IMG/VR virus record: IMGVR_UViG_3300048912_000049
Coordinates: 1 to 32,547 of that record
DNA length: 32,547 bases
Reading direction: 5' to 3' (one strand)
From: a virus
In this document: in pieces, positions 10,181-27,295 of the stretch
How positions within the stretch are numbered: the first letter of the stretch is position 1
Layout of the letters: every line of letters starts with the position of its first letter
Notes under the pieces: generated by a model
Told to the model about the DNA's origin: nothing
What the model saw: the letters and a program-made list of their open reading frames with translations, nothing else
Database searches by the model: none
Translations under genes and position numbers: made by a program

Positions 10181-10243
10181 TTGGAAGCCTTCAGCAAACA
10201 CTAACATTTGACTTCTAATCAAACCACGTTAAGTGCTTCCAGT
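10181..10243 (+). ncRNA. Y-RNA-like element 1 (ACAGCAAAC family)
   Basis: TTGGAAGC (10181-10188) pairs with GCTTCCAG (10235-10242). The inner strand continues with TCAGCAAAC at 10191-10199, one base off the family motif ACAGCAAAC. The interior is short and has no tRNA-like part. It lies between the stop at 10175 and the next start at 10263, so it could be an RNA of its own or a leader structure. Confidence 0.65.
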
Positions 10244-10262
10244 TAATTAAGAGGAAAGATCA

Positions 10263-10880
10263 ATGACATTGCTCGAACAAATCAAAGCAAACTTGGCAGC
10301 AGATCGTAAGAGCGCCAACAGAAGTTCAATCAGCATTCATACAGTGATTATTGGCGAATGCGAACGTGTCCATAAAGACCTGAACGATGAAGGTGTAATC
10401 AGAGTCTTGAAGAAGCTTCTTAAAGATACAAAAGATGCTTTAAGTTACTTCAAGAGTCCTATTGCAGTAGAGGCAGCAGAGTTTGAGATTAAAGTGATTG
10501 AGTCTTATCTTCCTAAACAACTCACTGAGTATGAGATAAAGAATCAAGTTTCAGTTGCTCGTTCTCTCGGTTGTAATGATGTTGGAGCAATCATGGGTTT
10601 CTTTAAGAAGCAACATAGTGGCCGGTACGATGGAGCACTTGTGAGTAAGTATGCAAAAGGCTTCACCCTTATTGAGCTGTTGATAGGTACTGCCATAATT
10701 GGAATTGTTGGCGTTATCTTTGTTGGTGCAGTCAAAGGAACTCAGGATAACAACCTGACATACGGCATTAATGGTTTTGTGGAAACACGTTGTATCAGTG
10801 GATATCAGTTTACGGTTGGTGAGCGAGGCCATGTTCATCAAATCTATGATGAGAATGGCCGAGGATTGCCTTGTAAGTAA
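10263..10880 (+). CDS. YqeY-like protein fused to a prepilin-type segment
   Basis: The 205-residue product has two recognisable parts. Residues 1-132 resemble the YqeY/GatB-associated family (EFEIKVIESYLPKQLTEYEI, then GAIMGFFKKQHSGRYDGALVS); this family has a putative role in tRNA-dependent amidation. Immediately after, GFTLIELLIGTAIIGIVGVI is a textbook type IV prepilin N-terminus: G at -1, F at +1, E at +5, then a hydrophobic helix. The tail (GFVETRCISGYQFTV ... GRGLPCK) has two cysteines as in minor pilins. The frame is continuous. An internal GTG at 10641 with GGAG five bases upstream could make the pilin part alone. It follows Y-like element 1. Confidence 0.7.
   Translation: MTLLEQIKANLAADRKSANRSSISIHTVIIGECERVHKDLNDEGVIRVLKKLLKDTKDALSYFKSPIAVEAAEFEIKVIESYLPKQLTEYEIKNQVSVARSLGCNDVGAIMGFFKKQHSGRYDGALVSKYAKGFTLIELLIGTAIIGIVGVIFVGAVKGTQDNNLTYGINGFVETRCISGYQFTVGERGHVHQIYDENGRGLPCK
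10641..10880 (+). other. Possible internal start giving a separate prepilin-like protein
   Basis: In frame with the fusion gene, GTG 10641 is preceded by GGAG at 10632-10635. Starting here would give about 79 residues beginning M-S-K-Y-A-K-G then FTLIELL, a short basic leader cut by prepilin peptidase after G. This is exactly the form of a free type IV prepilin. Whether it is used is not shown by sequence. Confidence 0.4.
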
Positions 10881-10906
10881 TTATTCAATTAACGAGAGAA
10901 AAGAAT

Positions 10907-11146
10907 ATGTTTAAACATGAACTCGGAAGAAAGGCTGAATCAATAGCTACTGGTTTGAAAGGTGTTCTGACATCCCGCTCAGAAAATCTCTATGGCTGTA
11001 ATCGTTATTTCATTCAACCGCGTGTAGGGCAAGAGCAGAAAATCCCTGAAGGCTGGTGGATAGATGAAGATGACATCATCACGCATGAAGAAATAGTTAA
11101 ACGAGAAGTTAAAACAACTGGTGGACCAATGAGCCAGAAGTGTTGA
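10907..11146 (+). CDS. Small conserved-looking phage protein
   Basis: The 79-residue protein has the motif GLKGVLTSRSENLYGCNRYF near residue 17 and PEGWWIDEDDI later. Short proteins with a T-G-x-x-G-x-x-T-S-R-x-x-x-x-x-G-C-x-R-Y pattern are frequent in phages, with no assigned function. It may form a small SH3-like barrel. ATG 10907 follows AACGAGAGAAAAG. It ends about 10 bases before the large Y-like element 2. Confidence 0.6.
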   Translation: MFKHELGRKAESIATGLKGVLTSRSENLYGCNRYFIQPRVGQEQKIPEGWWIDEDDIITHEEIVKREVKTTGGPMSQKC

Positions 11147-11152
11147 TCTAAG

Positions 11153-11292
11153 TTTTGCATCCTTACAGCAAACAATCTTCTATCCATGTGGAGGACGTAG
11201 GGTTGGTTCGAATCCAACCTCCCCGGTCTAGCGGGGAGTAGTGTAGTGGTAGCACGCGTAAAGAGATGGTGGTAATCCACTAAGGATGCAGT
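11153..11292 (+). ncRNA. Y-RNA-like element 2 with permuted tRNA mimic
   Basis: TTGCATCC (11155-11162) pairs with GGATGCAG (11284-11291), and ACAGCAAAC stands at 11165-11173. The interior reads in permuted tRNA order. T-arm GTTGG-TTCGAAT-CCAAC (11202-11218) is followed directly by CTCCCCG (11219-11225), a 6-base loop and CGGGGAG (11232-11238), a 7-bp acceptor stem. Then come TA at 11239-11240 (positions 8-9 of a tRNA) and D-arm GTGT-AGTGGTA-GCAC (11241-11255) with the GG of a D-loop. There is no anticodon. A GTGG/CCAC hairpin follows. It is the layout described for bacterial YrlA-type Y RNAs. Confidence 0.75.
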
Positions 11293-11296
11293 AGTT

Positions 11297-11385
11297 TGGC
11301 CCGAATAGCGCGTAAGTCTTTGTTGTTAGCTTACCGGCAACAATAAAGCGCCGAAAACGTATTCGATGAAAGGTCGAAAGGGCAG
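11297..11385 (+). ncRNA. Structured RNA with pseudoknot
   Basis: Nested pairings by eye: GCCC (11299-11302) with GGGC (11380-11383), CGAATA (11302-11307) with TATTCG (11360-11365) and GCGC (11308-11311) with GCGC (11348-11351). Inside this are two crossing helices, GTAAG (11312) with CTTAC (11330) and TTGTTG (11320) with CAACAA (11338), which would form an H-type pseudoknot. It sits between Y-like elements 2 and 3 without any gene, and I recognise no RNA family. Confidence 0.5.
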
Positions 11386-11390
11386 ATTAT

Positions 11391-11516
11391 TTTTGGATGA
11401 CTACAGCAAACAAACAGCCTATTAAGCCGTGGGTCGTAGGTTCGAGTCCTGCCTCCGTAACTGTAATCGGTACGGTGTAGCTCAGTTGGTAGAGCAACGT
11501 AAATGTTCATCCAGTT
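11391..11516 (+). ncRNA. Y-RNA-like element 3 with permuted tRNA mimic
   Basis: TTGGATGA (11393-11400) pairs with TCATCCAG (11507-11514). ACAGCAAAC is at 11403-11411. The interior again has T-arm GTAGG-TTCGAGT-CCTGC (11436-11452), acceptor CTCCGTA (11453-11459) with TACGGTG (11471-11477; one U-U mismatch), TA, and D-arm GCTC-AGTTGGTA-GAGC (11480-11495). The acceptor loop is 11 bases. Without an anticodon arm it is not a real tRNA. It stands 43 bases before the vWA gene start. Confidence 0.72.
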
Positions 11517-11558
11517 AACCTAAACATAAATTTAAATAGAGAGAAGCAAAGAAGGGAA

Positions 11559-12854
11559 ATGAAGAATTATATTGGTTTAGTAAATGATCATTCTGGTTCA
11601 ATGAGTCATTTGGCAAAAGCAGCAGCAAGTGATTACAACACAAACATCACTGCAATCAAAGATGCAGCAAGTCGTGAGATGTTGGATACCGTAGTTTCTG
11701 TGGTTGGTATTGGCCTCAGTAACAATGGTCATGGTGTGGTACGTCAAGTTCAAATCTCCAATCCGCATGTATTGAAACCTATTCAATCATGGCCGACTCC
11801 CGGTGGTACTCCTTTATGGGATGGTGTTGGTGAAATGATTGAATTGTTTGAATCCTTACCGGATGCAAATTCTCCTGATGTGTCGTTTCTTGTGATCACG
11901 ACGACTGATGGTGAGGAGATGCATTCAACTCGATACACACGCTATTCATTGGCTGCGAAGATTCAATCATTGCAACAATCTGGTCGTTGGACATTTGTGT
12001 TCCGCGTACCGAAGGGTAATCGTAATTCCCTGAATGGTCTTGGTGTTCCTATCGATAACATCCAAGAGTGGGAAACAACTGCAACGGGTATTGCAAAATC
12101 AACCGTAGCAACAACTCAGGCAATGGATAACTACTTCACTACACGTTCTGCTGGTGCTCGTTCATCGAATGCCTTTTATGCAAATGCGAGTTCAGTGAAT
12201 ACATCTGCATTGAAAGATATCAGCAGTGATGTTTCGTTATACATCGTAGCGGATAGTCAAATGGGTATGGAGATTCGTGAATTTATTCTGACGAAACGTA
12301 TGGAATATTTAAAAGGATCAGCGTTCTACCAATTGACTAAGACTGAAGCACGAGTACAACACGATAAATTGATTATTGTTCGTGACCGTACCACTGGTGC
12401 TTTCTATGCCGGTAAAGCCGCTCGTGGAATGATTGGTTTACCAACAGACCGTAATGCACGTCTACATCCCGATGATCATGGCAACTTTGATATTTTCATT
12501 CAAAGTAAAAGCGTCAATCGTAAATTGGTTGCTGGAACAGGCGTCGTATATTGGGCTGCAATTGGTACGCCATTTACTGAAGCTGATCTTGAATATCTGA
12601 AGCCGAAGGTTGCGAATGGTGTTGTGCAGTTGCCTACTGTGGCTCCGACGAATCGACCAACCCCGAGTCCGATTCCGAAGAAAGTTGCCGTGAAGATGTC
12701 CTCGGCGGCTAGTATTAATGGTCGTCCAGTGAAGTGTTTCCGTACTCGTGACGAAGCTCGCGACTACGCTCGTCCACTAGGGAAGGTTGTTAAAGACATT
12801 AACGAATTCAGTTCAGTTTTTAACGCCACAGGCCGTTGGTTCGTATTTATTTAA
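11559..12854 (+). CDS. vWA-domain protein (phage family)
   Basis: The 431-residue protein begins with a von Willebrand factor A domain. The MIDAS motif D-H-S-G-S at residues 10-14 is followed by a T in GGTPLWDG (about residue 85) and a D in TTTDGEE (about 116), so the metal site is complete. A second domain follows from about residue 230 (FILTKRMEYLKGSAFYQLTK, later IIVRDRTTGAFYAGKAARG and FIQSKSVNRKLVAG). It looks like a domain for binding a ligand, perhaps RNA, but I recognise no name. ATG 11559 is preceded by AGAGAGAAGCAAAGAAGGG. It stands among Y-like RNAs and is a candidate partner of the Ro60-like protein, which also has a vWA domain. Confidence 0.7.
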   Translation: MKNYIGLVNDHSGSMSHLAKAAASDYNTNITAIKDAASREMLDTVVSVVGIGLSNNGHGVVRQVQISNPHVLKPIQSWPTPGGTPLWDGVGEMIELFESLPDANSPDVSFLVITTTDGEEMHSTRYTRYSLAAKIQSLQQSGRWTFVFRVPKGNRNSLNGLGVPIDNIQEWETTATGIAKSTVATTQAMDNYFTTRSAGARSSNAFYANASSVNTSALKDISSDVSLYIVADSQMGMEIREFILTKRMEYLKGSAFYQLTKTEARVQHDKLIIVRDRTTGAFYAGKAARGMIGLPTDRNARLHPDDHGNFDIFIQSKSVNRKLVAGTGVVYWAAIGTPFTEADLEYLKPKVANGVVQLPTVAPTNRPTPSPIPKKVAVKMSSAASINGRPVKCFRTRDEARDYARPLGKVVKDINEFSSVFNATGRWFVFI

Positions 12855-12873
12855 TGAATGTAATAAATAATAC

Positions 12874-12901
12874 TTGCAAAGTATAATAAATGTGGTATGA
12901 T
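12874..12901 (+). promoter_or_regulatory. Rightward phage promoter 4
   Basis: TTGCAA (12874-12879), a 16-base spacer and TATGAT (12896-12901). It is nearly identical to the promoter at 9662 over 30 bases. It stands just before Y-like element 4 and, with the terminator at 17050, delimits the Ro60-like transcription unit. Confidence 0.65.
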
Positions 12902-12913
12902 GGTTACATGAAG

Positions 12914-12984
12914 TTTTGGAAGCGTACAGCAAACCCTTTAAACATTTGGTCAAAAACTGAAAACGTTGAAAAGGCTTCCAGTTA
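12914..12984 (+). ncRNA. Y-RNA-like element 4
   Basis: TTGGAAGC (12916-12923) pairs with GCTTCCAG (12974-12981), with ACAGCAAAC at 12926-12934. The interior is about 50 bases, AT-rich, with no tRNA-like arms. It begins some 13 bases after the -10 box of promoter 4, so a transcript starting there would begin almost with this element. Confidence 0.68.
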
Positions 12985-12986
12985 GT

Positions 12987-13108
12987 TTTGTAGTAGGCAC
13001 AAAGGCTGATCTATTAAAGCCAACTGTGTGGGTAGGAATATTTGGGACTTACGCTCGTAAGTAATAGGTTATGAAAGGAAGATAACCCAGCCAACCCATT
13101 ACTACAAA
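12987..13108 (+). ncRNA. Large structured RNA A, next to Y-like element 4
   Basis: TTTGTAGTA (12987-12995) pairs with TACTACAAA (13100-13108). Inside are GGCT/AGCC, ACTTACG-CT-CGTAAGT and GGTTAT/ATAACC hairpins, so it looks like a multi-branch RNA of about 120 bases. It has no start codon or reading frame. I know no family for it. A similar-sized structure follows element 5 (13743-13866). Confidence 0.5.
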
Positions 13109-13231
13109 TAAAGAAGCCATACTAGGTTGGTAAAGTCTTCGGCGCGTTGAGACTGGTTATTCTTTAGTGAATATCCTCTTAATCACGGAGCATCAAATTC
13201 AAAGTGTGCATAACAGGAAAAGGCTAAGAAA
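13109..13231 (+). other. Leader region of the HD gene
   Basis: No gene is seen. AGTCT...AGACT near 13135 forms a short hairpin, and GGTTATTC/GAATATCC can pair further on with one mismatch. It may be part of the structured RNA before it or the 5' leader of the HD-domain gene, whose ribosome binding site is weak (GGAAAAGG, 15 bases before ATG). Confidence 0.3.
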
Positions 13232-13672
13232 ATGTCAAATGGTGAAATGTTAAATCGAATGCTAGTGCTTGCAACAAACGCTCACGCTGGCCAGTTTGAT
13301 AAAGGTGGTAAACCCTACATTCTCCACCCTTTAAAGGTTATGCACATGCTTAGATCAGATGATGAGGAGCTGAATTGCATTGCTCTTGGTCACGATCTTA
13401 TTGAAGATACAAAGATAGCTATTAGCGAACTCCATACAAATTTTAGTGATCGCATCGTAAAAGGGATTGCTAATTTAACAAAGTTCAAAGGAGAGTCATA
13501 CGAGAAGTACATCGACAATATTCTACGGAATAGAGATGCTATTCAAGTAAAGATGTGTGATTTACGACATAACTCAGATTTGCGTCGTCTGAGAGGAGTT
13601 ACACAGAAAGACCTTGAAAGGGTGGGGCGTTACTGCGCTTTCTACAAAGTGTTGGAAGAAGCCCTTAAATAG
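13232..13672 (+). CDS. HD-domain (MESH1/RelA-SpoT-like) hydrolase
   Basis: The 146-residue single-domain protein has motifs of the MESH1/SpoT hydrolase family. These are AGQFDKGGKPYILHPLKV (first His, H32), HDLIEDT (H54-D55, then E58-D59) and VKMCDLRHNSDLRRL (Asp). These ligate the manganese ion that hydrolyses (p)ppGpp or related nucleotides. Length agrees with small alarmone hydrolases. A phage enzyme of this type could remove the stringent signal during infection, which is an inference. It is in one unit with the Ro60-like gene, after promoter 4, and is followed at once by Y-like element 5. Confidence 0.75.
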   Translation: MSNGEMLNRMLVLATNAHAGQFDKGGKPYILHPLKVMHMLRSDDEELNCIALGHDLIEDTKIAISELHTNFSDRIVKGIANLTKFKGESYEKYIDNILRNRDAIQVKMCDLRHNSDLRRLRGVTQKDLERVGRYCAFYKVLEEALK

Positions 13673-13737
13673 TTTTGGATCATTACAGCAAACAAAAACG
13701 CTAACCATTGTCTCTAGCGAGAAAGTTGATCCAGTTG
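13673..13737 (+). ncRNA. Y-RNA-like element 5
   Basis: TTGGATC (13675-13681) pairs with GATCCAG (13728-13734). ACAGCAAAC is at 13685-13693. Inside is a small hairpin CGCTA (13699-13703) with TAGCG (13715-13719). It begins directly after the stop of the HD gene at 13672. No tRNA-like part is present. Confidence 0.68.
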
Positions 13738-13742
13738 ATTTA

Positions 13743-13866
13743 GTAGTGACACGGGCCGCATAAAAGTTGTACACGGCTTGCACGGTGACGACAGTGACCT
13801 GGAAAGTAAAGCGAAGGGTGCTCTGTGAGCAAGGCATCACCATTAGCGTTTGGATACTGTCACTAC
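13743..13866 (+). ncRNA. Large structured RNA B, next to Y-like element 5
   Basis: GTAGTGACA (13743-13751) pairs exactly with TGTCACTAC (13858-13866). Inside are GCCG/CGGC, GGTGA/TCACC and TGCTC-TGT-GAGCA hairpins. It is 124 bases, about the size of structured RNA A, and like it begins within 10 bases of the end of a Y-like element, with a shared AGTAG start. I recognise no RNA family and no reading frame. Confidence 0.5.
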
Positions 13867-13871
13867 ATCTA

Positions 13872-13958
13872 ATTTGAATGAGTACAGCAACTAAACCGGG
13901 TTAAAGACGAGGGCATTAACGCCCAAGTCGAGTGGGTTCAAGCCCCACACCATTCAGT
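13872..13958 (+). ncRNA. Y-RNA-like element 6, in the leader of the Ro60-like gene
   Basis: TTGAATG (13874-13880) pairs with CATTCAG (13951-13957). The motif is ACAGCAACTAAAC here, a variant of ACAGCAAAC starting at 13884. It holds GGGC/GCCC (13911/13921) and a T-arm, GTGGG-TTCAAGC-CCCAC (13932-13948), but no D-arm or acceptor loop. Its 3' strand ends 17 bases before ATG 13975, so it overlaps the leader and could serve feedback control by the protein. It may be a degenerate copy. Confidence 0.6.
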
Positions 13959-13974: not shown

Positions 13975-15375
13975 ATGAGTAAATTAGTGAAAGCAATACA
14001 ATCGAATAACAATGTCACCGCTACCACAAATGGTATGAAGGCATATAAAACAGCAGGCTCCGCAATCGTTGACTTATTTGGATCAATTGGTTCAAGCCGA
14101 GGTAACGATCTTGCACCGATGTTCTATGCAGCAGTGAGTGAGGATCAAGACCTTGCCTATCGAGTGTTGCAATACGCTCGTGACATCCGTGGTGGCATGG
14201 GTGAGCGTGAAATGTTCCGGGCAATTCTTAAAAAGATTGCCATCGTTGATTACGAATTAGCAGTACGCCTCTTGCCAAAAATTCCGGTGATTGGTCGTTG
14301 GGATGATGTATTGGTACTGCTCTGGACGCCGGCCGAAAGAGAGGCCATAGAACTGATTAGGGAAGCTTTGGAGCAACGTAACGGTCTATGCGCTAAATGG
14401 ATGCCACGCAAGGGTAATGAGGCTGCAAAGCTTATACAGACGCTTGGATGGTCATTGAAGTTCTACCGGAAGACCGTAGTAGGCGCAAGCAACACAGTTG
14501 AACAATTGATGTGTGCTAACAAGTGGAATGATATTGAGTTTAGTAAAGTTCCATCAGTAGCTTCAGCTCGATACCAGAAAGCATTTGGGCGTCGTGCTCC
14601 AGAGCGTTATTCCGCATACCTTGCTGCACTTGAAAAAGGTGAAACCAAGATCAATGCGGGTGCAGTGTATCCATATGATGTTCTGAAGTCGGTACTTCTC
14701 GGTAATGCACGAGTTGCTGATCAACAGTGGAAAGCACTTCCTGACTACATGCCTGAAGGTGTGAATATCCTTCCTGTGATTGATGTATCAAGTTCGATGC
14801 ACTGTCCTATCGGTGGTTCTAAGGGCGTGGGAATGGATTGTATGCATATGGCTATCAGCTTAGGTATGTATTTGTCCGAACGTAACAAAGGTATTTTCAA
14901 AGATGCCTTCATCACGTTCCATAATCATCCTGAGTTGAGAGTGATGCATTCTCCAAACCTCTCTGGTCGATACAGTGAGGTTAAGAGTAGTCCGTGGGGC
15001 GGAAGTACGAATTTACTGTCTTCATTTAAATTGATTCTGGATGCAGCCGTAACAAATAAATTAGATCAGGAAGATTTACCAACACACTTGGTGATCTTGT
15101 CAGACATGCAATTCAATTCAGCTTGTCATTCAGGCGACAGTGCTGTCGAAGCAGCCCGAAGAATGTTTACGGAAGCTGGATACACATGCCCGCAACTGAT
15201 CTTCTGGAATCTGAATGCAATGTATGACAACACGCCCGTCAAAGTTAATGATGAAGGTGTTGCATTGGTCAGTGGATTCAGTCCAGCAATTATGAAAAGT
15301 GTAATGGCGAGTAAGGTGATCAGTCCTTTGGATATGATTAAAGAATTAGTTTGTATTGAACGGTACGATTGGTAA
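13975..15375 (+). CDS. DUF2828/TROVE-like protein with vWA domain (Ro60-like)
   Basis: This 466-residue protein has a helical repeat N-terminal half with YARDIRGGMGEREMF near residue 66, then PVIGRWDDVLVLL, the pattern of the DUF2828 and TROVE families. From about residue 264 a vWA domain begins. D270-V-S-S-S is the MIDAS motif, with T in WGGSTNLL and D in LSDMQF as further ligands. The end (QLIFWNLNA, SGFSPAIM) is typical for DUF2828. Ro60/TROVE proteins bind Y RNAs and misfolded RNAs in a ring of HEAT-like repeats. I take this as the RNA-binding partner of the six Y-like elements. ATG 13975 follows GAGAGAGAAAAC. A GTG at 13957 would lie in element 6. Confidence 0.85.
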   Translation: MSKLVKAIQSNNNVTATTNGMKAYKTAGSAIVDLFGSIGSSRGNDLAPMFYAAVSEDQDLAYRVLQYARDIRGGMGEREMFRAILKKIAIVDYELAVRLLPKIPVIGRWDDVLVLLWTPAEREAIELIREALEQRNGLCAKWMPRKGNEAAKLIQTLGWSLKFYRKTVVGASNTVEQLMCANKWNDIEFSKVPSVASARYQKAFGRRAPERYSAYLAALEKGETKINAGAVYPYDVLKSVLLGNARVADQQWKALPDYMPEGVNILPVIDVSSSMHCPIGGSKGVGMDCMHMAISLGMYLSERNKGIFKDAFITFHNHPELRVMHSPNLSGRYSEVKSSPWGGSTNLLSSFKLILDAAVTNKLDQEDLPTHLVILSDMQFNSACHSGDSAVEAARRMFTEAGYTCPQLIFWNLNAMYDNTPVKVNDEGVALVSGFSPAIMKSVMASKVISPLDMIKELVCIERYDW

Positions 15376-18300: not shown

Positions 18301-20049
18301 TTGGCAGAGGTAGATCATAAAGAAGGCTGTCCCCGCTGCATTAAAAATGGAAGAGATAACAGTAGAGATAATCTAATTGTCTACAAAGATGATGGAGGAG
18401 CTTTCTGTTTTTCTTGTGGGTATACAGTAAAAAGCAAATCAATTGAAGATGAAAAAGAGGAGGACTTATTCCTAGAGTCTATGGCAGTTTTTACAGATGA
18501 AGATTTACAGAAGTTAAAAGATAATACAACAACGGACGGCTCTGATTACCGATGTATACGTGATGACATTTACGCATACTTCAGAGTTAGACACGAATAC
18601 GACACAGAATCTCTTGACCTTGTTAAGCAGTTTTATCCGAACACGAAAGGCGGCGAGCTGTGTGGGTACAAAGTAAGAGCACTCCCTAAAGAGTTTTATT
18701 CGTTAGGTACAAATAGTTCTACCACTGACTTGTTCGGTCAGTTTCGGTTTCTCAAAACAACATCTAATTGGTGCTTAATCGTCGGTGGTGAGATTGATCA
18801 ACTCAGCGCATATCAAATGCTGGTTGACTATCAAGCATCGAGAGGCAGTGACTTTGCTCCAATTGCCGTGGTGAGTCCGACTGTTGGTGAAACCAGTGCA
18901 GCTAAGCAGTTGCAACACCATTATGAATGGTTCAGCCGATTTGAGAAGATTATTCTCTGTTTTGATAACGATGCCCCAGGTAGGGATGCAACGGAAAAAG
19001 CAGTGAAGGTTTTACCTAAAGGTAAAGTATTCATTCTTGAGATGGAAAGAAAAGACCCGAATGAATATCTAGAGTCCGGTAGAGAAAAAGAATTTATCAA
19101 TGCATTTTTCAAAGCTCGGCAATATGCTCCAGCGGGGATATTAGGCTCAGATCGGCTACGAGATCGAATCATTGAACACGTAAGAACACCGAAGATTCCA
19201 CTTCCGCCATTCCTGAAAAAGCTTATGGAGATGACAGCAGGAGGAATACCTCTTGGTGTAATCGTGAATATAGGCGCAGCGTCTGGTGTAGGTAAAACAT
19301 CCATTGTTAATGAGATGACTTATTACTGGATTTTTAATAGTCCACACCGTATCGGGGTTGTTTCGTTAGAGTTGGATGCAGGCCAGTATGGTGAAGCGAT
19401 GTTATCTCGTCATGTTGGTGTCAAAATTCCTTTAATTTCTGATCCAGAAAAGAAACTCGCGTTCCTGGAGCGAGAGGATATTTTTCAGAAGTCGATTGAA
19501 TTCTTTGAGCATGAAGATGGTAGCCCGCGTTGGCACGTAGTCGATGACAGAGATGGTAGTCTCACAACGATAAAAGCAGTCATCGAGAATTTAGTAGTTG
19601 CTTGTGATTGTCGTGTAATTATTATCGACCCGCTCCAAGATTTGTTGGATGGCTTGAGCAATGAAGAACAGTCGTTATTTATGAAGTGGCAAAAGTCCGT
19701 AGTTAAGAGTCACGGAATAACTTTCATCAATATCAACCACGTTCGTAAATCAGGCGTTGGTGGGCAGCAGAACTCTCAAGGTGCTTTTATCACTGAAGAA
19801 GATTTCGCGGGGAGTTCTACGATCTTTAAATCAGCAGCAGGTAATTTTCTCTTTATGAGGAATAAGTATGCTGAAGATGAATTCGAAAGAAATACAGTAA
19901 AGTGTGTAGCAAGTAAAATTCGATGGACAGGTAATACAGGTCCAGCGGGTGAGGCTTATTACGACAATCAGACCCATACCCTGTGGGAGAAAGAAGAGTA
20001 CATGCGAGAGCACGGTATCGTGCTAGATGATAATGAGAGTAGTAATTGA
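18301..20049 (+). CDS. Bifunctional DNA primase-helicase (T7 gp4-like)
   Basis: The 582-residue protein has the full layout of T7 gene 4. A zinc ribbon comes first (CPRC at residues 10-13, CFSC near 39), then a TOPRIM primase domain with E164 (VGGEID) and D222-x-D224 (CFDNDAPG). A RecA-type helicase follows with Walker A GASGVGKT-like motif ending K332-T333, Walker B (VIIIDPLQDL) and the sensor H in NINHVRKS. It unwinds DNA at the fork and makes primers for the polymerase encoded next. The start is a TTG at 18301 after AGGGGG; no ATG would keep the zinc ribbon. It overlaps the polymerase by 17 bases. Confidence 0.9.
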   Translation: MAEVDHKEGCPRCIKNGRDNSRDNLIVYKDDGGAFCFSCGYTVKSKSIEDEKEEDLFLESMAVFTDEDLQKLKDNTTTDGSDYRCIRDDIYAYFRVRHEYDTESLDLVKQFYPNTKGGELCGYKVRALPKEFYSLGTNSSTTDLFGQFRFLKTTSNWCLIVGGEIDQLSAYQMLVDYQASRGSDFAPIAVVSPTVGETSAAKQLQHHYEWFSRFEKIILCFDNDAPGRDATEKAVKVLPKGKVFILEMERKDPNEYLESGREKEFINAFFKARQYAPAGILGSDRLRDRIIEHVRTPKIPLPPFLKKLMEMTAGGIPLGVIVNIGAASGVGKTSIVNEMTYYWIFNSPHRIGVVSLELDAGQYGEAMLSRHVGVKIPLISDPEKKLAFLEREDIFQKSIEFFEHEDGSPRWHVVDDRDGSLTTIKAVIENLVVACDCRVIIIDPLQDLLDGLSNEEQSLFMKWQKSVVKSHGITFININHVRKSGVGGQQNSQGAFITEEDFAGSSTIFKSAAGNFLFMRNKYAEDEFERNTVKCVASKIRWTGNTGPAGEAYYDNQTHTLWEKEEYMREHGIVLDDNESSN

Positions 20050-21719
20050 TATCGAGGCAACGGGCCTCCTGAATAGTTCTTCAATTGATTATTCAACAAT
20101 ACCGTACAAACTGAAGTCCACTTTTAAAGTTCATTGTATCGTTGTAAAAGATATTGATACGGGAGAGTTTTATAAATTCTACGAAGAGACTCTAAAGGAT
20201 TTTCCAGAGTTCTCTGAAAGATTCACTTTAATGATTCTCCACAATGGTATCAGTTATGACTTGAGAGTTCTCCAACTCTATTATGGGTTGGACTACAAAA
20301 TCACAAGTACGGAAGATTGGTTCAACGCTAGAAAAATTACTATCGTTGATACGTTGGTGCTCAGTAAGTTGCTCAACCCTGATCGCGGTGGTCACAGCCT
20401 AAAGTGGTGGGGAAGTGAGTTAAAGTTCTCAAAAGGAAATATAACAACTGACGAGGACGGCGAAGATATTCCTGATGTTTGGGAAGAGTTTTCACTCCCT
20501 ATGCTTGAATATTGCGAACGAGATGTCGAGCTTACTCATAAAGTCTATGATGCGTTAACGGTTGAGGCATTTGGTGCTGATTGGCGAGAAGCACACAGAT
20601 TGGAGAAGTTTGTTGCTTACTATATTAATTTGTATTCACATTATGGGTTCAAATTTGATCGTGATTTAGCACTAGATAACCTTGATGAACTTGATGAGTG
20701 GATATCAAAAATTGAGGTGGACGTGGAAAAACGTTTACCAAAATGCAAAATGAATAAAGGAGAATCTGACGTATTTATTCCTCCCAAGATTCAGTTCAAG
20801 AAGAACAAGGAAATGTCAGCAAATATGCTGAAGTTCTTGGAGAAACATGACGGTAAAGTAATAGACAATAAGACTGTAGCTGTTTTCGGTAAGACATGGG
20901 AACTACCTATCCCACAAGAACCGATGGTCACAGAAAAACAAATGACCTTAAAAGACCAAATACAACTGAAGCAGTGGTTGTGTAGCCTAGGTTGGGTGGC
21001 ATCGGTTTGGAAGGATAGAGATTTAACATGCAAGAGTGGTACTAAGCAAAAAGTTGATAGGGATAAATTTCTTGAGGCTTATCAGAAATGGAGAGACAAG
21101 ATTGTTGATACTCCATATGAATCACTGATTCTTGATGAGCTTGAAGTTGGAAGTATTGCGGAGCTTGACCATAAGATTTCCACGCATGAGATTAGAAGAC
21201 CGTTCAAGGTTCCAACAAATCCCAGTTATGTAAAAAATCAGGAAAAGGATATTTGTGACAACCTACTAGCTCTAGGTGAAAAAGTTGATTTTGTTTCTGA
21301 TATCGTCAAGTACCTTACCTATAAACATAGGCGAAGTAGCATCAGTGGAAGTGATGAGGAAAAAGGTTGGCTAAATAATACTAGGCTAGATGTTGATGGA
21401 AGAATACCGACTCCAGCGGATACTGTTGGAACGAATACATACCGCTTTCGACATATTGATGTTTGTAATATCCCAAGGGTTTCATCTCTTTACGGAGAGA
21501 ATATTCGTGGGATGTTTTGTGTAGATAGTCATCAATACCAAATTGGTTACGATGGTAGTGGTTTGGAAGCTCGTGTGCAGGGGCACTTTATTTTTAATAA
21601 ACAAGGTGGACCAGAGTTCGCGAAATTACTTCTGCAAAATAAGCCTAATGATATTCACACTGTTACGGCAAGAAATCTAAATATTCCTAGAGATATTGCA
21701 AAAAATATTCGCTATGCGT
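20033..21719 (+). CDS. Family A DNA polymerase, exon 1 (3'-5' exonuclease and start of palm)
   Basis: The exonuclease motifs are clear: DIEATGL (D-x-E), HNGISYDL and YCERDVELTH (Y-x-x-x-D). The palm begins with motif A, YDGSGLEARVQGHF. Reading on, motif B breaks off after RDIAKNIRYAL; the frame runs into a stop at 21775. A group I intron explains this. Spliced to 22424, the sequence reads RYAL-MYGAT, which completes motif B. The start is either 20027 or ATG 20033 (MRVVIDIEATG); I prefer the latter. A hairpin, AGCACG-GTAT-CGTGCT (20009-20024), stands right before the start and could limit translation. Its frame overlaps the end of the primase-helicase gene. Confidence 0.9.
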
Positions 21720-22423
21720 TGACATTAACAGCGCATATAAAATTGTGTGAACTCAGTGGAACTCTAATCACGTAATGGTGAAGACAATACTGAGCCAAGC
21801 TAAGTAGTCAATTGCACAGAAATAGGTGTGCAAGATGTATCAAAGTGGTAACAAACAACAAGAGGAAATGACAGCAATACCTTCTAAGTATCCACAAGGA
21901 TTCTTTAAAGATAAACCCTGTCGATTATGTGGGACTGTATTTAGTCCATTAGCTCCGTCACATTTATACTGTAAGCAGGAATGTGCTGATGAAGCTTTTA
22001 CAAGGAATCACCTCAGGAAGACTTATAATTTATCTCTTGAGCAGTTCCATTACATTTATGAAAAGCAAAATGGGCTTTGTGCAATATGTAAGAAGGAGGG
22101 CTTCCAATTAAGTACACACCAGAAGTTTAAGATCGTGGTTGACCATTGTCATACAACTGGCGTTGTTCGTGGAATGCTTTGCCATAACTGCAATAGAGCA
22201 CTTGGTCTGTTTCAAGATAATGTTGAAAGTTTAAAAACCGCAATTGATTATTTAGAAGGTGCAACGACTATCCCCATCGGGGAGTACATTCCAAGCAATC
22301 GGGAATGGAAGCGCACAACACGTAATCGAAAGAAGCGTGATGATATAGTCTGCTCTGCATAGAAATATGCAGCAGCTTGAATAAAGCGGAGAGGGGCGTA
22401 GCGACACCTCTTGAACACAAAGG
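21720..22423 (+). mobile_element. Group I intron in the DNA polymerase gene, with HNH gene
   Basis: The exon end TATGCGT (21713-21719) pairs with GCGCATA (21731-21737) with a U-G wobble at the splice site: the P1 helix. CATTA (21723-21727) pairs with TAATG, the start of exon 2 (22424): P10. The last base is G (22423), as required. P7 is GACTAT (22266-22271) with ATAGTC (22345-22350), P7.1 is CCCC/GGGG next to it, and P9 is CTGCATA (22355) with TATGCAG (22366). The 3' core resembles the T4 td intron. It is inserted in motif B of the polymerase. Confidence 0.88.
21835..22362 (+). CDS. HNH homing endonuclease in the intron (Endo VII-like)
   Basis: The product has about 175 residues. It has an N-terminal zinc finger (CRLCGTVFSPLAPS ... 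YCKQEC) and a C-terminal HNH domain of the recombination endonuclease VII type: KTYNLSLEQFHYIYEKQ, CAICKKEG, then DHCHTTGVVRGMLCHNCN and LGLFQDN. These hold a zinc ion and the catalytic metal. Such enzymes cut intron-less alleles and spread the intron. The start is uncertain: GTG 21826, ATG 21835 or ATG 21868 (after AGAGGAA). The first two lie in a hairpin (TTGCACA/TGTGCAA) that could block translation. Its last 30 codons also form the ribozyme core. Confidence 0.85.
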   Translation: MYQSGNKQQEEMTAIPSKYPQGFFKDKPCRLCGTVFSPLAPSHLYCKQECADEAFTRNHLRKTYNLSLEQFHYIYEKQNGLCAICKKEGFQLSTHQKFKIVVDHCHTTGVVRGMLCHNCNRALGLFQDNVESLKTAIDYLEGATTIPIGEYIPSNREWKRTTRNRKKRDDIVCSA

Positions 22424-23049
22424 TAATGTATGGAGCAACGTGGGGAAAAATCAAGAAGATGCTTGGTATCAGTGAAACTGCTGCGCAAAAACTTTTTGAT
22501 GATTTTTGGAATGATTCCTTACCACTAAAGCAGTTGAAGGAGGAGTACGAGAGATTCTGGCAGGACAAGAATAGAGGTAAAAAGAAATTCATTTATGGAA
22601 TTGATGGAAGGCGACTTACAACGCGATCAAAACATAGCTTAATCAACACTCTGTTCCAAAGCACAGGGGTCATCGTGATGAAGAGAGCCATGATGTTTCA
22701 TATTGAATGGTTGGAAGTAGAGGGCCTTATTGGTAATCCTTTCAATGAGGACATCAATAACAAACCTTGTGCTTTACAAATGATCCATTACCACGATGAA
22801 GCTCAATGGGCAGTTCATAGGAGCCTTGTTGAATTTAAGAAGTTTTCTTCTGAAAAAGAAGCAGAAGAGTTTGATGATGGAAGAATATGGTCTTCGCCAA
22901 GTGAATTCAAAGGTTCATGGTGGAGAATGTATTCAAGAGTAGGTGAACTAGCCACGCTTGCAGTTAGGAAGGCGGGAGAGTTTTATAAATTAAATGTAGC
23001 ACTGGATAGCGAATATGTTATTGGCTTGAATTGGGCTATGTGTCACTAA
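22424..23049 (+). CDS. Family A DNA polymerase, exon 2 (fingers, motif C)
   Basis: The spliced frame begins within the codon for L (last base T of exon 1 plus TA), then MYGATWGKIKKML, the second half of motif B. Motif C is HYHDEAQWAVH with the catalytic D-E. With exon 1 it makes about 770 residues, in the range of T7-type and related phage polymerases. Unspliced, the piece would begin with a TTG in the intron and lack the exonuclease. That is the alternative I reject, since P1 and P10 agree with splicing. It is the replicative polymerase of the phage. Confidence 0.88.
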
Positions 23050-24672: not shown

Positions 24673-25667
24673 CGGCAGTAATTGATGCCGATCTTATCTT
24701 ATACAAAGCGGCAAGCGCCGGAGAACAACGGGTAATTGAAGTTACACATAAAGCTTCAGGAAGAAAACAAGAATTCGCAAACAGGACTGCATTTAAACAG
24801 TTCCTCACTGAGAAGCCTAAGTTTACGCTTGAAGATTTCGAGATCGTAGATATTCAACGTCCACCATCGGTAGACGTGTGCTATTCAAATGCAAAATCAA
24901 TGATCGAAAGTATGTGCGAAGTTGTTGGCGCTACAAAGTATGAGCTTTACGTTGGCAAAGGAGATTCATTTAGAAAGAGTTTTGATCTGCCAACACAATA
25001 TAAAAACGGGCGCAATAAAATGCTGAAGCCTGTCCACTTGAATGACGTGAAACAATATCTCATACACAGTTACGGAGCTAAACAAGTCGAAGTCATTGAG
25101 GCTGACGATATGCTTAGTATTCGTGCCTACGAGGGATATTTGGAATTCAGAGAATCGGGTAAGGATGAGGATAAAGTTGTACAGATAACATCAGACAAAG
25201 ATGCTAAGCAATGTCAGGGGTGGTTATACAACCATGATACGTCAACGCAAGCTATTTGGATTGAAGGTTACGGCAGTTTATGGCGCGAAGAAAAAGGAAA
25301 AGTAAATGGGAATGGCCGAGCTTGGCTCTATTTTCAGTCTTTGGCTGGTGATCCAGTGGATACCTACAAGCCTTCTGAATTGTCAGGTACAAAGTTTGGA
25401 GATGTATCTGCGTTCGAAGCTCTCAAAGATTGCAAAGATGATCGCGATGCGCTGAAGGTTCTAGCAACACAATATAAAACTTGGTATCCAGAACCTGTCA
25501 CCTACATGACATGGGATGGGAGAGAGGTCACTAAAGATTACATTGAGTTAGTTGATATGTATTTCAATACAGCCCGCATGTGGCGATGGATGGATGATAA
25601 GGTGAATCTCAAAGATGTGTTTAAAACACATGGGATTATTTCTATGAGAGATGCAGGGAAGAAATGA
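24666..25667 (+). CDS. 5'-3' exonuclease (FEN/PIN fold, T7 gp6-like)
   Basis: The 333-residue protein carries the acidic motifs of the FEN-like exonucleases: VIDADLILYKA (first D residues), EADDMLSI, ITSDKDAKQ and SLAGDPVDTY. These bind two metal ions. T7 gp6 has the same role: removing RNA primers and degrading DNA from the 5' end during replication and recombination. It starts with ATG in a 7-base overlap with the small membrane protein. Length is near that of T7 gp6 (about 300 residues). Confidence 0.85.
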   Translation: MVTAVIDADLILYKAASAGEQRVIEVTHKASGRKQEFANRTAFKQFLTEKPKFTLEDFEIVDIQRPPSVDVCYSNAKSMIESMCEVVGATKYELYVGKGDSFRKSFDLPTQYKNGRNKMLKPVHLNDVKQYLIHSYGAKQVEVIEADDMLSIRAYEGYLEFRESGKDEDKVVQITSDKDAKQCQGWLYNHDTSTQAIWIEGYGSLWREEKGKVNGNGRAWLYFQSLAGDPVDTYKPSELSGTKFGDVSAFEALKDCKDDRDALKVLATQYKTWYPEPVTYMTWDGREVTKDYIELVDMYFNTARMWRWMDDKVNLKDVFKTHGIISMRDAGKK

Positions 25668-25966: not shown

Positions 25967-26529
25967 CCACATTACCTTGGGAAATTCCCGGTGTACCGTG
26001 GAAAACTGAATCAGCATTTTGGGGATGGGTGAGAGGAGTTTTGCGAAAAGGGTGGTCAGTTCATCCTGTAAAGATTGAGTTTATTAAACAAAACAGAAAG
26101 CGAATTGTAAATCCAAAGAAAGGTCATCGTAACAAAGAAGAAATATGGGGAATGACCTGCGCGATATGCAATGTTGATCATCCCCAAGCAGATATTGAAA
26201 TAGATCATAAAAACGCGGCTTCTTCTTTGCGTTGCTTAGAGGATTTACAAGGTTTCTGTCAGCGATTGTTCTTCGTATGCTTCAGCGACCTACAACCCGT
26301 CTGTAAGCCCTGCCACAAGATTATCTCGTATTCGCAGAAGCAAGGTATGTCTTTTGAAGAGGCTGCTTTAGAGAAGCGTGTAATTGAGTTATGTAAGCTT
26401 CCAGCTCAAGGTCAATATGATTGGCTGTGTGAACATGCTCCGGGCCATCTTGGTTTTCCATCAAAAATGAATGCTAAGCAGAGAAGAGAAGCAATTAAGA
26501 AAACATTGAAAGAGAGTAAAATTGAGTAA
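25963..26529 (+). CDS. HNH endonuclease
   Basis: The 188-residue protein has a C-x2-C pair (CAIC) followed by HPQADIEIDHKNAAS and, further on, LQPVCKPCHKIIS. This is the H-N-H layout: D-H metal site, the central N/C region and a C-x2-C/H pair. It lies between exonuclease and phosphoesterase, as a freestanding HNH enzyme does in several T7-like and marine podophages. It may process replication intermediates or act as a homing enzyme. The C-terminal part (MNAKQRREAIKKTLKESK) is basic and may bind DNA. Confidence 0.75.
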   Translation: MTTLPWEIPGVPWKTESAFWGWVRGVLRKGWSVHPVKIEFIKQNRKRIVNPKKGHRNKEEIWGMTCAICNVDHPQADIEIDHKNAASSLRCLEDLQGFCQRLFFVCFSDLQPVCKPCHKIISYSQKQGMSFEEAALEKRVIELCKLPAQGQYDWLCEHAPGHLGFPSKMNAKQRREAIKKTLKESKIE

Positions 26530-27295
26530 GAGAATATTGATTATACCGGATACACAATGTAAACCGGGAGTTGACCTAAGTCATCTTGAGTATGCAGGCA
26601 AGTACATAGTCGATAAACGGCCTGATGTGATTGTTCACCTTGGTGATCATTGGGATTTTGAAAGCTTGAGTTCTTACGATAAAGGTAAGCTCAGTGCTGA
26701 AGGTAGAAGATATGCTGCTGACCTCGATGCTGGTGAGCGTGGTATGTCAATGCTGTTATCACCACTATGGGAATTGCAGACGAAGCAAATTCTTGATCGA
26801 AAGAAAGTTTATCGACCACGATTAGTTTTCTGCAAAGGCAACCATGAAGATCGTGCAGATCGTGTTGCAAAAATGAATCCAGAATTTGCAGGGTTTATTA
26901 GCAGCGATAATCTAGGGCTTGAGAAGTTAGGTTGGGAAGTTTATGACTTTCTAAAGCCTGTGGAAATTGAAGGTATCTTCTTTGTCCACTTCTTAGCAAA
27001 TCCAATGTCAAATAAACCTTATGCTGGTTCTGCATTAAATGTATTGAAGACAGTTGGTAGAAGCTTTGTTGTCGGCCATCGTCAAGTGCTTGACCTCGCA
27101 ATCAGACCAACAATTGATGGTAAACATCAAATCGGTATCGTTGCAGGTGCTTTCTATCAACACGATGAATCGTACAAAGGACCAACAGGTAATAACCACT
27201 GGCGCGGGGTAGTAATGCTGAATGAAGTTCAAGATGGTTATGGTGATCCAATGCCCGTATCTATCAGCTATCTCAAGAGGAAGTATGGCGGATGA
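26522..27295 (+). CDS. Calcineurin-like metallophosphoesterase
   Basis: The 257-residue protein has the phosphoesterase motifs in order: PDTQ near residue 9 (in place of D-x-H), GDHWDF near residue 41, GNHEDR near 106 and VGHRQ near 187. Together they hold the two metal ions. The DxH motif is D-x-Q here, as in some phage relatives. It could be a nuclease or phosphatase, and phages of the SIO1/VpV262 kind have a similar gene near their replication genes. The start is a TTG, overlapping the HNH gene by 8 bases. Confidence 0.8.
   Translation: MSKRILIIPDTQCKPGVDLSHLEYAGKYIVDKRPDVIVHLGDHWDFESLSSYDKGKLSAEGRRYAADLDAGERGMSMLLSPLWELQTKQILDRKKVYRPRLVFCKGNHEDRADRVAKMNPEFAGFISSDNLGLEKLGWEVYDFLKPVEIEGIFFVHFLANPMSNKPYAGSALNVLKTVGRSFVVGHRQVLDLAIRPTIDGKHQIGIVAGAFYQHDESYKGPTGNNHWRGVVMLNEVQDGYGDPMPVSISYLKRKYGG

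What the first reader, a model, noticed from the sequence alone, without database searches (positions are those of the whole stretch)
10181..13958. Phage-borne array of six Y-RNA-like elements beside a Ro60-like protein
Six elements in under 4 kb share TT-stem-N2-4-ACAGCAAAC and a 3' stem followed by AG (at 10181, 11153, 11391, 12914, 13673, 13872). Their stems differ (GGAAGC, GCATCC, GGATGA, GGATC, GAATG) but are each matched by a perfect complement on the 3' side, while the U-U and A-G ends and the ACAGCAAAC motif are kept. This is compensatory change of a conserved RNA helix. They occur only here and lie beside a DUF2828/TROVE-vWA gene. Ro60 proteins are known to bind Y RNAs at such an end helix. 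A multi-copy Y-RNA array with its own Ro-like protein in a phage would be a new kind of system.
Basis: partly seen in the sequence, partly recalled or inferred. Interest (0 to 1): 0.93.

Follow-up and report, generated by a model that had tools for sequence, protein, structure and literature searches.

The report
Phage Y-RNA-like array with Ro60-like protein
This phage carries six small non-coding RNA genes, each closed by a short helix that probably docks onto the phage's own Ro60-type RNA-handling ring protein. Two of them contain a rearranged tRNA. Related arrays turn out to be widespread in phages, so this is a rich, little-described variant of a known kind rather than a one-off.

Summary
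Six intergenic elements share a 6-8 bp closing helix, 2-4 nt, C(A)GCAA and a G after the 3' strand; dinucleotide shuffles never gave more than 2 in any 3.86 kb. The neighbouring gene encodes a DUF2828/DUF7788 protein whose predicted structure matches Ro60 over ~405 residues (Z 23). Element 3 carries a circularly permuted tRNA domain matching Rfam YrlA (E 1e-5, below the gathering score); element 2 shows the same architecture with a weak match (E 0.36). 'Only here' is wrong: 87 of 98 phage Ro loci have such an element on the Ro strand, against 6 of 98 on the other, with strong compensatory change and arrays of up to 8. So these are phage Y RNAs, a known kind (YrlA; mycobacteriophage Y RNAs; a solved phage Ro60), not a new kind of system. 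The phage Ro-binding end differs from the bacterial one, and one phage can carry several cargo types. Outside the window, other Ro-encoding phages carry native-orientation tRNAs with a capped Ro hairpin in the anticodon arm; I found no description of these in the papers I could search. Transcription and binding are untested.

The parts
10182..10242 (+). Y-RNA-like element 1 (short cargo): TGGAAGC-CTT-CAGCAAAC ... GCTTCCA-G
   Evidence: covariance model R1, E 1.7e-8; the element is in the seed
11156..11291 (+). Y-RNA-like element 2: Ro helix TGCATCCT/AGGATGCA; cargo = permuted tRNA-like domain (T arm, acceptor closed by GTCTAG, D arm)
   Evidence: YrlA 22.6 bits, E 0.36; rotated alignment to native tRNA-Ro chimeras z 10; fold z -3.8
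11394..11514 (+). Y-RNA-like element 3: Ro helix TGGATGA/TCATCCA; cargo = permuted tRNA(Asn)-like domain
   Evidence: YrlA 38.2 bits, E 1.1e-5, below gathering 69; rotated alignment z up to 15.6
12917..12981 (+). Y-RNA-like element 4 (short cargo), just downstream of a promoter-like box
   Evidence: E 1.1e-7; in the seed
13676..13734 (+). Y-RNA-like element 5 (short cargo): TGGATCA ... TGATCCA-G
   Evidence: E 1.9e-8; in the seed
13875..13957 (+). Y-RNA-like element 6: 6-bp Ro helix TGAATG/CATTCA; cargo looks like the 3' half of a tRNA (hairpin + T arm GTGGGTTCAAGCCCCAC)
   Evidence: E 0.074; fold z -3.0
13975..15375 (+). Ro60-like protein (DUF2828 + DUF7788; phrog_850); start at ATG 13975 is more likely than the GTG at 13957
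12874..12901 (+). promoter-like box TTGCAA-16-TATGAT ending 15 bases before element 4; related TTGCA..TATAATAAAT stretches at about 9019 and 9662
   Evidence: sigma-70-like sites are not enriched in the region as a whole

Best explanation
The six elements are genes for small Y-RNA-like non-coding RNAs (shown: sequence, conserved helix, position; inferred: that they are transcribed as separate RNAs). Each RNA is closed by a 6-8 bp helix with 2-4 nt and CAGCAA on the 5' side and a G after the 3' strand. That end docks on the phage's own Ro60-like ring protein (inferred from co-occurrence and the Ro60 fold). The part inside the helix is exchangeable cargo: short hairpin-type inserts in 1, 4 and 5, a circularly permuted tRNA domain in 2 and 3, and a T-arm-bearing half tRNA in 6. 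By analogy with bacterial Ro60/Y RNA particles, the bound Y RNA gates access of substrate RNAs to the ring and tethers RNA- or tRNA-handling enzymes to it. The phage would use this for quality control, decay or repair of tRNAs and other structured RNAs during infection (inferred).
For: Far beyond chance in the window. Same descriptor around phage Ro genes: 188 hits on the Ro strand against 9 on the other, 88 distinct stem sequences, spacing of exactly 3 nt in 177 of 188; 87 of 98 loci against 6 of 98. In a set chosen by sequence anchors only, all 20 loci carrying the conserved element next to the Ro gene show full pairing, including T-A/A-T/G-C, G-C/A-T and C-G/T-A swaps; sliding the partner strand drops pairing from 0.85 to about 0.5 (figures include chance anchor matches). 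Whole-record covariance search: 9 of 11 Ro phages hit, all hits on the Ro strand, including non-seed phages KVP40 and DLP_6. Contigs picked by an element motif alone: 15 of 26 carry the Ro-like gene, including all 7 of 100 kb or more. Protein: Ro60 fold, Z 23 over 405 residues; DxSxS, T and D positions typical of a vWA metal site invariant. tRNA-like cargo: YrlA match and rotated alignments.
Against: No transcript or binding data for this phage. The published abundant CKA15 transcript that has coordinates (26,236-26,727) does not overlap the three elements found there at 25,290-25,552. Elements 2, 3 and 6 score poorly in the short-form model because of long or atypical inserts. The phage Ro-binding end is not the bacterial YrlA one, so the recognition mode is inferred. 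11 of 98 loci lack a strict element, and 11 of 26 element-bearing contigs, all 65.9 kb or shorter, show no Ro gene. The 100% pairing is by construction. No enzyme partner is identified.
Confidence: 0.74

Rival explanations
1. Same RNAs and same docking on the Ro-like protein, but the main job is decoy or protection: the tRNA-like cargoes mimic tRNAs to occupy host anticodon nucleases or tRNA enzymes, and the Ro protein mainly stabilises them.
For: tRNA-like cargo; native tRNA-shaped versions in other phages. PMC7790460 raises competitive inhibition of an anticodon nuclease as a possible YrlA role and found that YrlA itself was not cut.
Against: Most phage elements have short cargoes or inserts with no demonstrated tRNA features, so decoying is unlikely to be the general role.
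Confidence: 0.2
2. The elements are cis-acting mRNA structures (untranslated-region hairpins, processing or stability sites) that the Ro-like protein or an RNase recognises, not free non-coding RNAs.
For: All lie in short gaps between co-directional genes; only element 4 has an obvious promoter-like box just before it, and no terminator-like sites on the + strand follow the elements.
Against: Tandem copies inside one gap, inserts up to ~190 nt with complete tRNA-like domains, and native-orientation relatives that are recognisable tRNA genes fit free RNAs better.
Confidence: 0.13
3. A family of mobile repeats or decayed tRNA genes that happens to sit near the Ro gene.
For: Multiple copies; tRNA remnants; nearby true tRNAs.
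Against: Stems diverge but remain paired through compensatory change; cargo sequences differ between copies while the closing helix is kept; strand and gene linkage.
Confidence: 0.03

Closest known systems
YrlA (Rfam RF02553), bacterial Y RNA with tRNA-like domain
   Same: Ro-binding end helix plus a circularly permuted tRNA-like domain (T arm, closed acceptor, D arm) in elements 2 and 3; encoded beside a Ro60-type protein
   Different: Below the YrlA gathering score; the bacterial Ro end (cggCga-AUGC ... UuGucGccg) is not the phage end (variable 7-bp stem-N3-CAGCAA ... stem'-G); the phage model finds nothing in the two bacterial loci; partner is DUF2828-type
Mycobacteriophage Y RNAs (Chen et al. 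2014, as cited in PMC12282133; original paper not held)
   Same: Likely the same family: phage Whirlwind has three such elements directly after its Ro-like gene
   Different: Here six elements with several cargo types; the original paper could not be read, so overlap with its list is unchecked
Putative Y RNAs of Listeria phage CKA15 (PMC12282133)
   Same: Ro-like gene CKA15_055 with abundant unannotated transcripts within 2 kb upstream; three elements of this family lie directly upstream of that gene
   Different: The one abundant region with published coordinates is a different, larger RNA; the paper only suspects Y RNAs
Deinococcus radiodurans Rsr / DrY RNA / PNPase (RYPER)
   Same: Works-like model: Y RNA as tether and gate on a Ro60 ring (described in PMC4726728); fold match to 2nvo
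   Different: No PNPase link shown here; protein identity about 14-16%
Thermus phage phiLo Ro60 (PDB 9l5y, 9kop)
   Same: Phage-encoded Ro60 fold (Z 16.5-17.8)
   Different: TROVE-domain protein; not significantly similar to the DUF2828 profile by sequence (E 0.42)

Membership tests
Ro60-like proteins (structural superfamily) | Ring of helical repeats plus vWA domain, matching Ro60 over its length | tested here: met
   AlphaFold2 pLDDT 85; Foldseek top 11 all Ro60/TROVE; VIA Z 23.3, 405 residues against 1yvr
Ro60-like proteins (structural superfamily) | vWA metal-site motif | tested here: met
   D276, S278, S280, T351, D383 invariant in alignments A1, A3 and A4
TROVE family (Pfam TROVE) by sequence | Match to the TROVE profile | tested here: not met
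   Pfam reports only DUF2828 and DUF7788; profile against the PDB TROVE proteins E 0.42
YrlA RNA (RF02553) | Score at or above the Rfam gathering threshold | tested here: not met
   Best 38.2 bits against 69
YrlA RNA (RF02553) | Permuted tRNA-like domain inside a closing stem | tested here: met
   Element 3 (E 1.1e-5) with rotated alignments; element 2 has the same arms but a weak YrlA match (E 0.36)
YrlA RNA (RF02553) | Conserved bacterial Ro-binding stem sequence | tested here: not met
   Consensus differs; phage model R1 finds none in bacterial loci L103 and L104
Y RNAs in the functional sense | Conserved, covarying end helix formed by both RNA ends, encoded beside a Ro60-type gene | tested here: met
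Y RNAs in the functional sense | Direct binding to the Ro protein through that helix | not testable with these tools
   needs CLIP or gel shift
Y RNAs in the functional sense | Accumulates as a discrete small RNA | not testable with these tools
   no RNA-seq for this phage; CKA15 RNA-seq exists but per-base data are not held

The most novel reading that the evidence does not exclude
In tailed phages the Ro-binding arm is a portable module grafted onto many cargoes. Besides short hairpins and permuted tRNA domains (as in this window), it sits, capped by a short G-starting loop, inside the anticodon arm of native-orientation tRNA genes with an open acceptor end. I found 25 candidates of 111-126 nt in 12 phage records; 21 of 25 meet a strict Ro-hairpin test that shuffled inserts pass at 0.1%, and all 8 records checked encode the Ro-like protein. 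Window element 3 looks like a circular permutant of this form. One Ro ring would thus be served by an array of Y RNAs with different cargoes, including true tRNA bodies, and YrlA-type permuted Y RNAs may have arisen from tandem native-orientation chimeras.
Probability: 0.5. Interest if true: 0.75.

Novelty: new variant of a known kind. Interest (0 to 1): 0.6.

Why it matters
It gives a simple sequence signature for phage Y RNAs that Rfam misses, ties them to a large family of phage Ro60-fold proteins (682 of 50,697 phage records), and shows many cargo types on one docking helix. It makes the open question of what bacterial and phage Ro60/Y RNA particles do testable in phages that can be grown. 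The native-orientation tRNA-Ro chimeras, deposited as odd or pseudo tRNAs, suggest where permuted YrlA RNAs could come from.

Tried and rejected
Rfam at gathering thresholds finds only two true tRNAs in the window. Full-locus phage DNA similarity is confined mostly to the protein gene. I hoped the top CKA15 transcript region (26,236-26,727) would be one of these elements; it is not. A role for the interleaved vWA gene (11559-12854) as a Ro partner: a homologue sits next to tRNA-Ro chimeras in Synechococcus phage BUCT-ZZ01, but only 15 phage records carry it, so not pursued. Structured stretches between elements (11292-11388, 12986-13112, 13738-13868) have no similarity in the Ro-linked loci apart from copies of the window itself and the near-identical contig L002. 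A reversed-pattern control scan returned no contigs, so the background rate of Ro genes in random viral contigs was not measured. The original Chen et al. 2014 paper is not held, and Wang et al. 2018 was not looked up, so priority claims rest on citations in other papers.

Full report
OBSERVATION. The window is a 32.5-kb uncultivated phage record. Six elements lie in the gaps between + strand genes from 10.18 to 13.96 kb. Each has a 6-8 bp perfect closing helix, 2-4 nt, C(A)GCAA, an insert, the complementary strand and a G. In the window the descriptor finds all six on +, none on -, and two further isolated hits elsewhere; 300 dinucleotide shuffles average 0.76 hits and never place more than 2 in a stretch of this length. 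Two details of the finding are loose: element 1 has TTCAGCAAAC and element 6 ACAGCAACT, and elements 1 and 4 share a stem.

THE PARTNER PROTEIN. The ORF after element 6 matches Pfam DUF2828 and DUF7788 and PHROG 850 'RNA-binding protein'. It is not detectably TROVE by sequence. Its AlphaFold2 model (pLDDT 85) matches Ro60 structures above everything else: the top 11 Foldseek hits are Ro60 or TROVE entries, with Z 23.3 over 405 residues to the Ro autoantigen structure 1yvr. The vWA metal-site residues are invariant in alignments of up to 46 relatives. So it is a Ro60-fold protein of the DUF2828 branch.

THE CARGOES. Elements 1, 4 and 5 are short. Element 3 carries T arm, closed acceptor and D arm in that order, matching YrlA at 38 bits (E 1.1e-5; gathering 69); element 2 shows the same order with a weak match of 22.6 bits, E 0.36. 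Element 6 has a T-arm hairpin next to the helix and folds better than shuffles (z -3.0); reading it as a half tRNA is my inference.

CONSERVATION. Around 98 phage Ro-like genes, 87 loci have at least one strict element on the Ro strand and 6 on the other strand; 43 have two or more and one has eight. Across loci the strict descriptor gives 188 hits against 9 by strand, with 88 different stem sequences and a 3-nt spacing in 177 of 188. Because those were chosen by complementarity, I also took elements anchored only by CAGCAA upstream and GGNGGA downstream. The loci with the conserved element next to the Ro gene (20 of 26 anchor matches, including near-duplicates) are fully paired with compensatory swaps; the other anchor matches look like chance. 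A covariance model searched over whole records finds elements in 9 of 11 Ro-encoding phages, always on the Ro strand, including phages not in the seed. In the reverse direction, contigs found by one element motif alone carry the Ro gene in 15 of 26 cases and in all seven of 100 kb or more; those without are fragments of 66 kb or less. For scale, 682 of 50,697 phage records carry the protein. I did not measure the rate in random large contigs.

EXPRESSION. Nothing is known for this phage. In Listeria phage CKA15 (PMC12282133) three abundant unannotated transcripts lie within 2 kb upstream of the Ro-like gene CKA15_055, and the protein was detected in purified virions. I find three elements of this family at 25,290-25,552 of that genome, just before CKA15_055 and just after a TTGACA...TATCAT box. 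The one abundant region with printed coordinates (26,236-26,727) does not overlap them, so this is suggestive only.

NATIVE-ORIENTATION CHIMERAS. Several related phages have tRNA genes of 111-126 nt, some annotated as tRNA-Val or pseudo-tRNA. They have normal acceptor, D and T arms, and in the anticodon arm a hairpin with the same features as the Ro end: about 7 bp, a short loop starting with G (as the G that follows the 3' strand in the open form), 3-4 nt, then CNGCA. Of 25 candidates in 12 records, 21 pass a strict test that shuffled inserts pass at 0.1%. Some were found with the hairpin as a criterion; those in L106-L110 came from BLAST hits and tRNA criteria alone. All 8 records checked encode the Ro-like protein. 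Rotating window element 3 into tRNA order raises its alignment score to these RNAs from 56 to 120 (z 15.6), and element 2 from 44 to 100 (z 10.3); part of this similarity is what any tRNA would give. The tRNA/Y RNA circular permutation itself is known (Wang et al. 2018, as described in PMC11472068); I found no description of the native-orientation form in the papers held.

WHAT IT IS. Known kind: Y RNAs with a Ro60 partner. Membership in YrlA proper fails on score and on the sequence of the Ro-binding end, so I call these phage Y-RNA-like RNAs. Multi-copy arrays are not unique either: a Planctomycetota contig has four YrlA matches in about 600 nt, two of them weak. How it works is inferred from Deinococcus (Rsr, Y RNA and PNPase; Y RNA as tether and gate, PMC4726728): the shared end docks on the ring, the variable cargo decides what is gated or recruited.

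Noticed in passing
L007 6894, 7015; L008 6895, 7025; L009 9349; L012 671, 966, 3715; L013 9019, 9151; L032 1037; L102 5590, 5720; L106 1501; L107 1001, 1367, 1501; L108 1494; L109 181, 332, 922, 1496; L110 962, 1357, 1497: Native-orientation tRNA genes of 111-126 nt with a Ro-type hairpin in the anticodon arm, in phages that encode the Ro-like protein; some are annotated as pseudo-tRNA or tRNA-Val.
   Followed up: partly
L008 7140-7300: A permuted Y RNA in Cronobacter phage S13 keeps ACCA right after its acceptor 3' strand, as if a tRNA 3' end were preserved inside the closing loop.
   Followed up: no
window 12986-13112, 13738-13868, 11292-11388: Stretches after or between the elements that can fold into long stems (the first one z -2.9); no relatives found in the Ro-linked loci.
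   Followed up: partly
window 11559-12854: A second vWA-type protein (DHSGSM motif; phrog_26613) sits inside the array; a homologue lies next to the tRNA-Ro chimeras in Synechococcus phage BUCT-ZZ01, but it is rare elsewhere.
   Followed up: partly
window 10263-10880: An ORF with a YqeY-like domain (tRNA amidotransferase type) running directly into a prepilin N-methylation motif, an odd fusion.
   Followed up: no
window 20027-21775, 21826-22362, 22411-23049: DNA polymerase split into two ORFs that match consecutive parts of one profile, with an endonuclease VII-type gene between them.
   Followed up: no
L105 3391-3882 (CKA15 26,236-26,727): The most abundant transcript region of Listeria phage CKA15 is not a Y-like element; a ~490-nt RNA of unknown kind.
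   Followed up: partly
L103 4742-5330: Four YrlA matches in tandem in a Planctomycetota contig: one above the gathering score, one at 61 bits, two weak.
   Followed up: no
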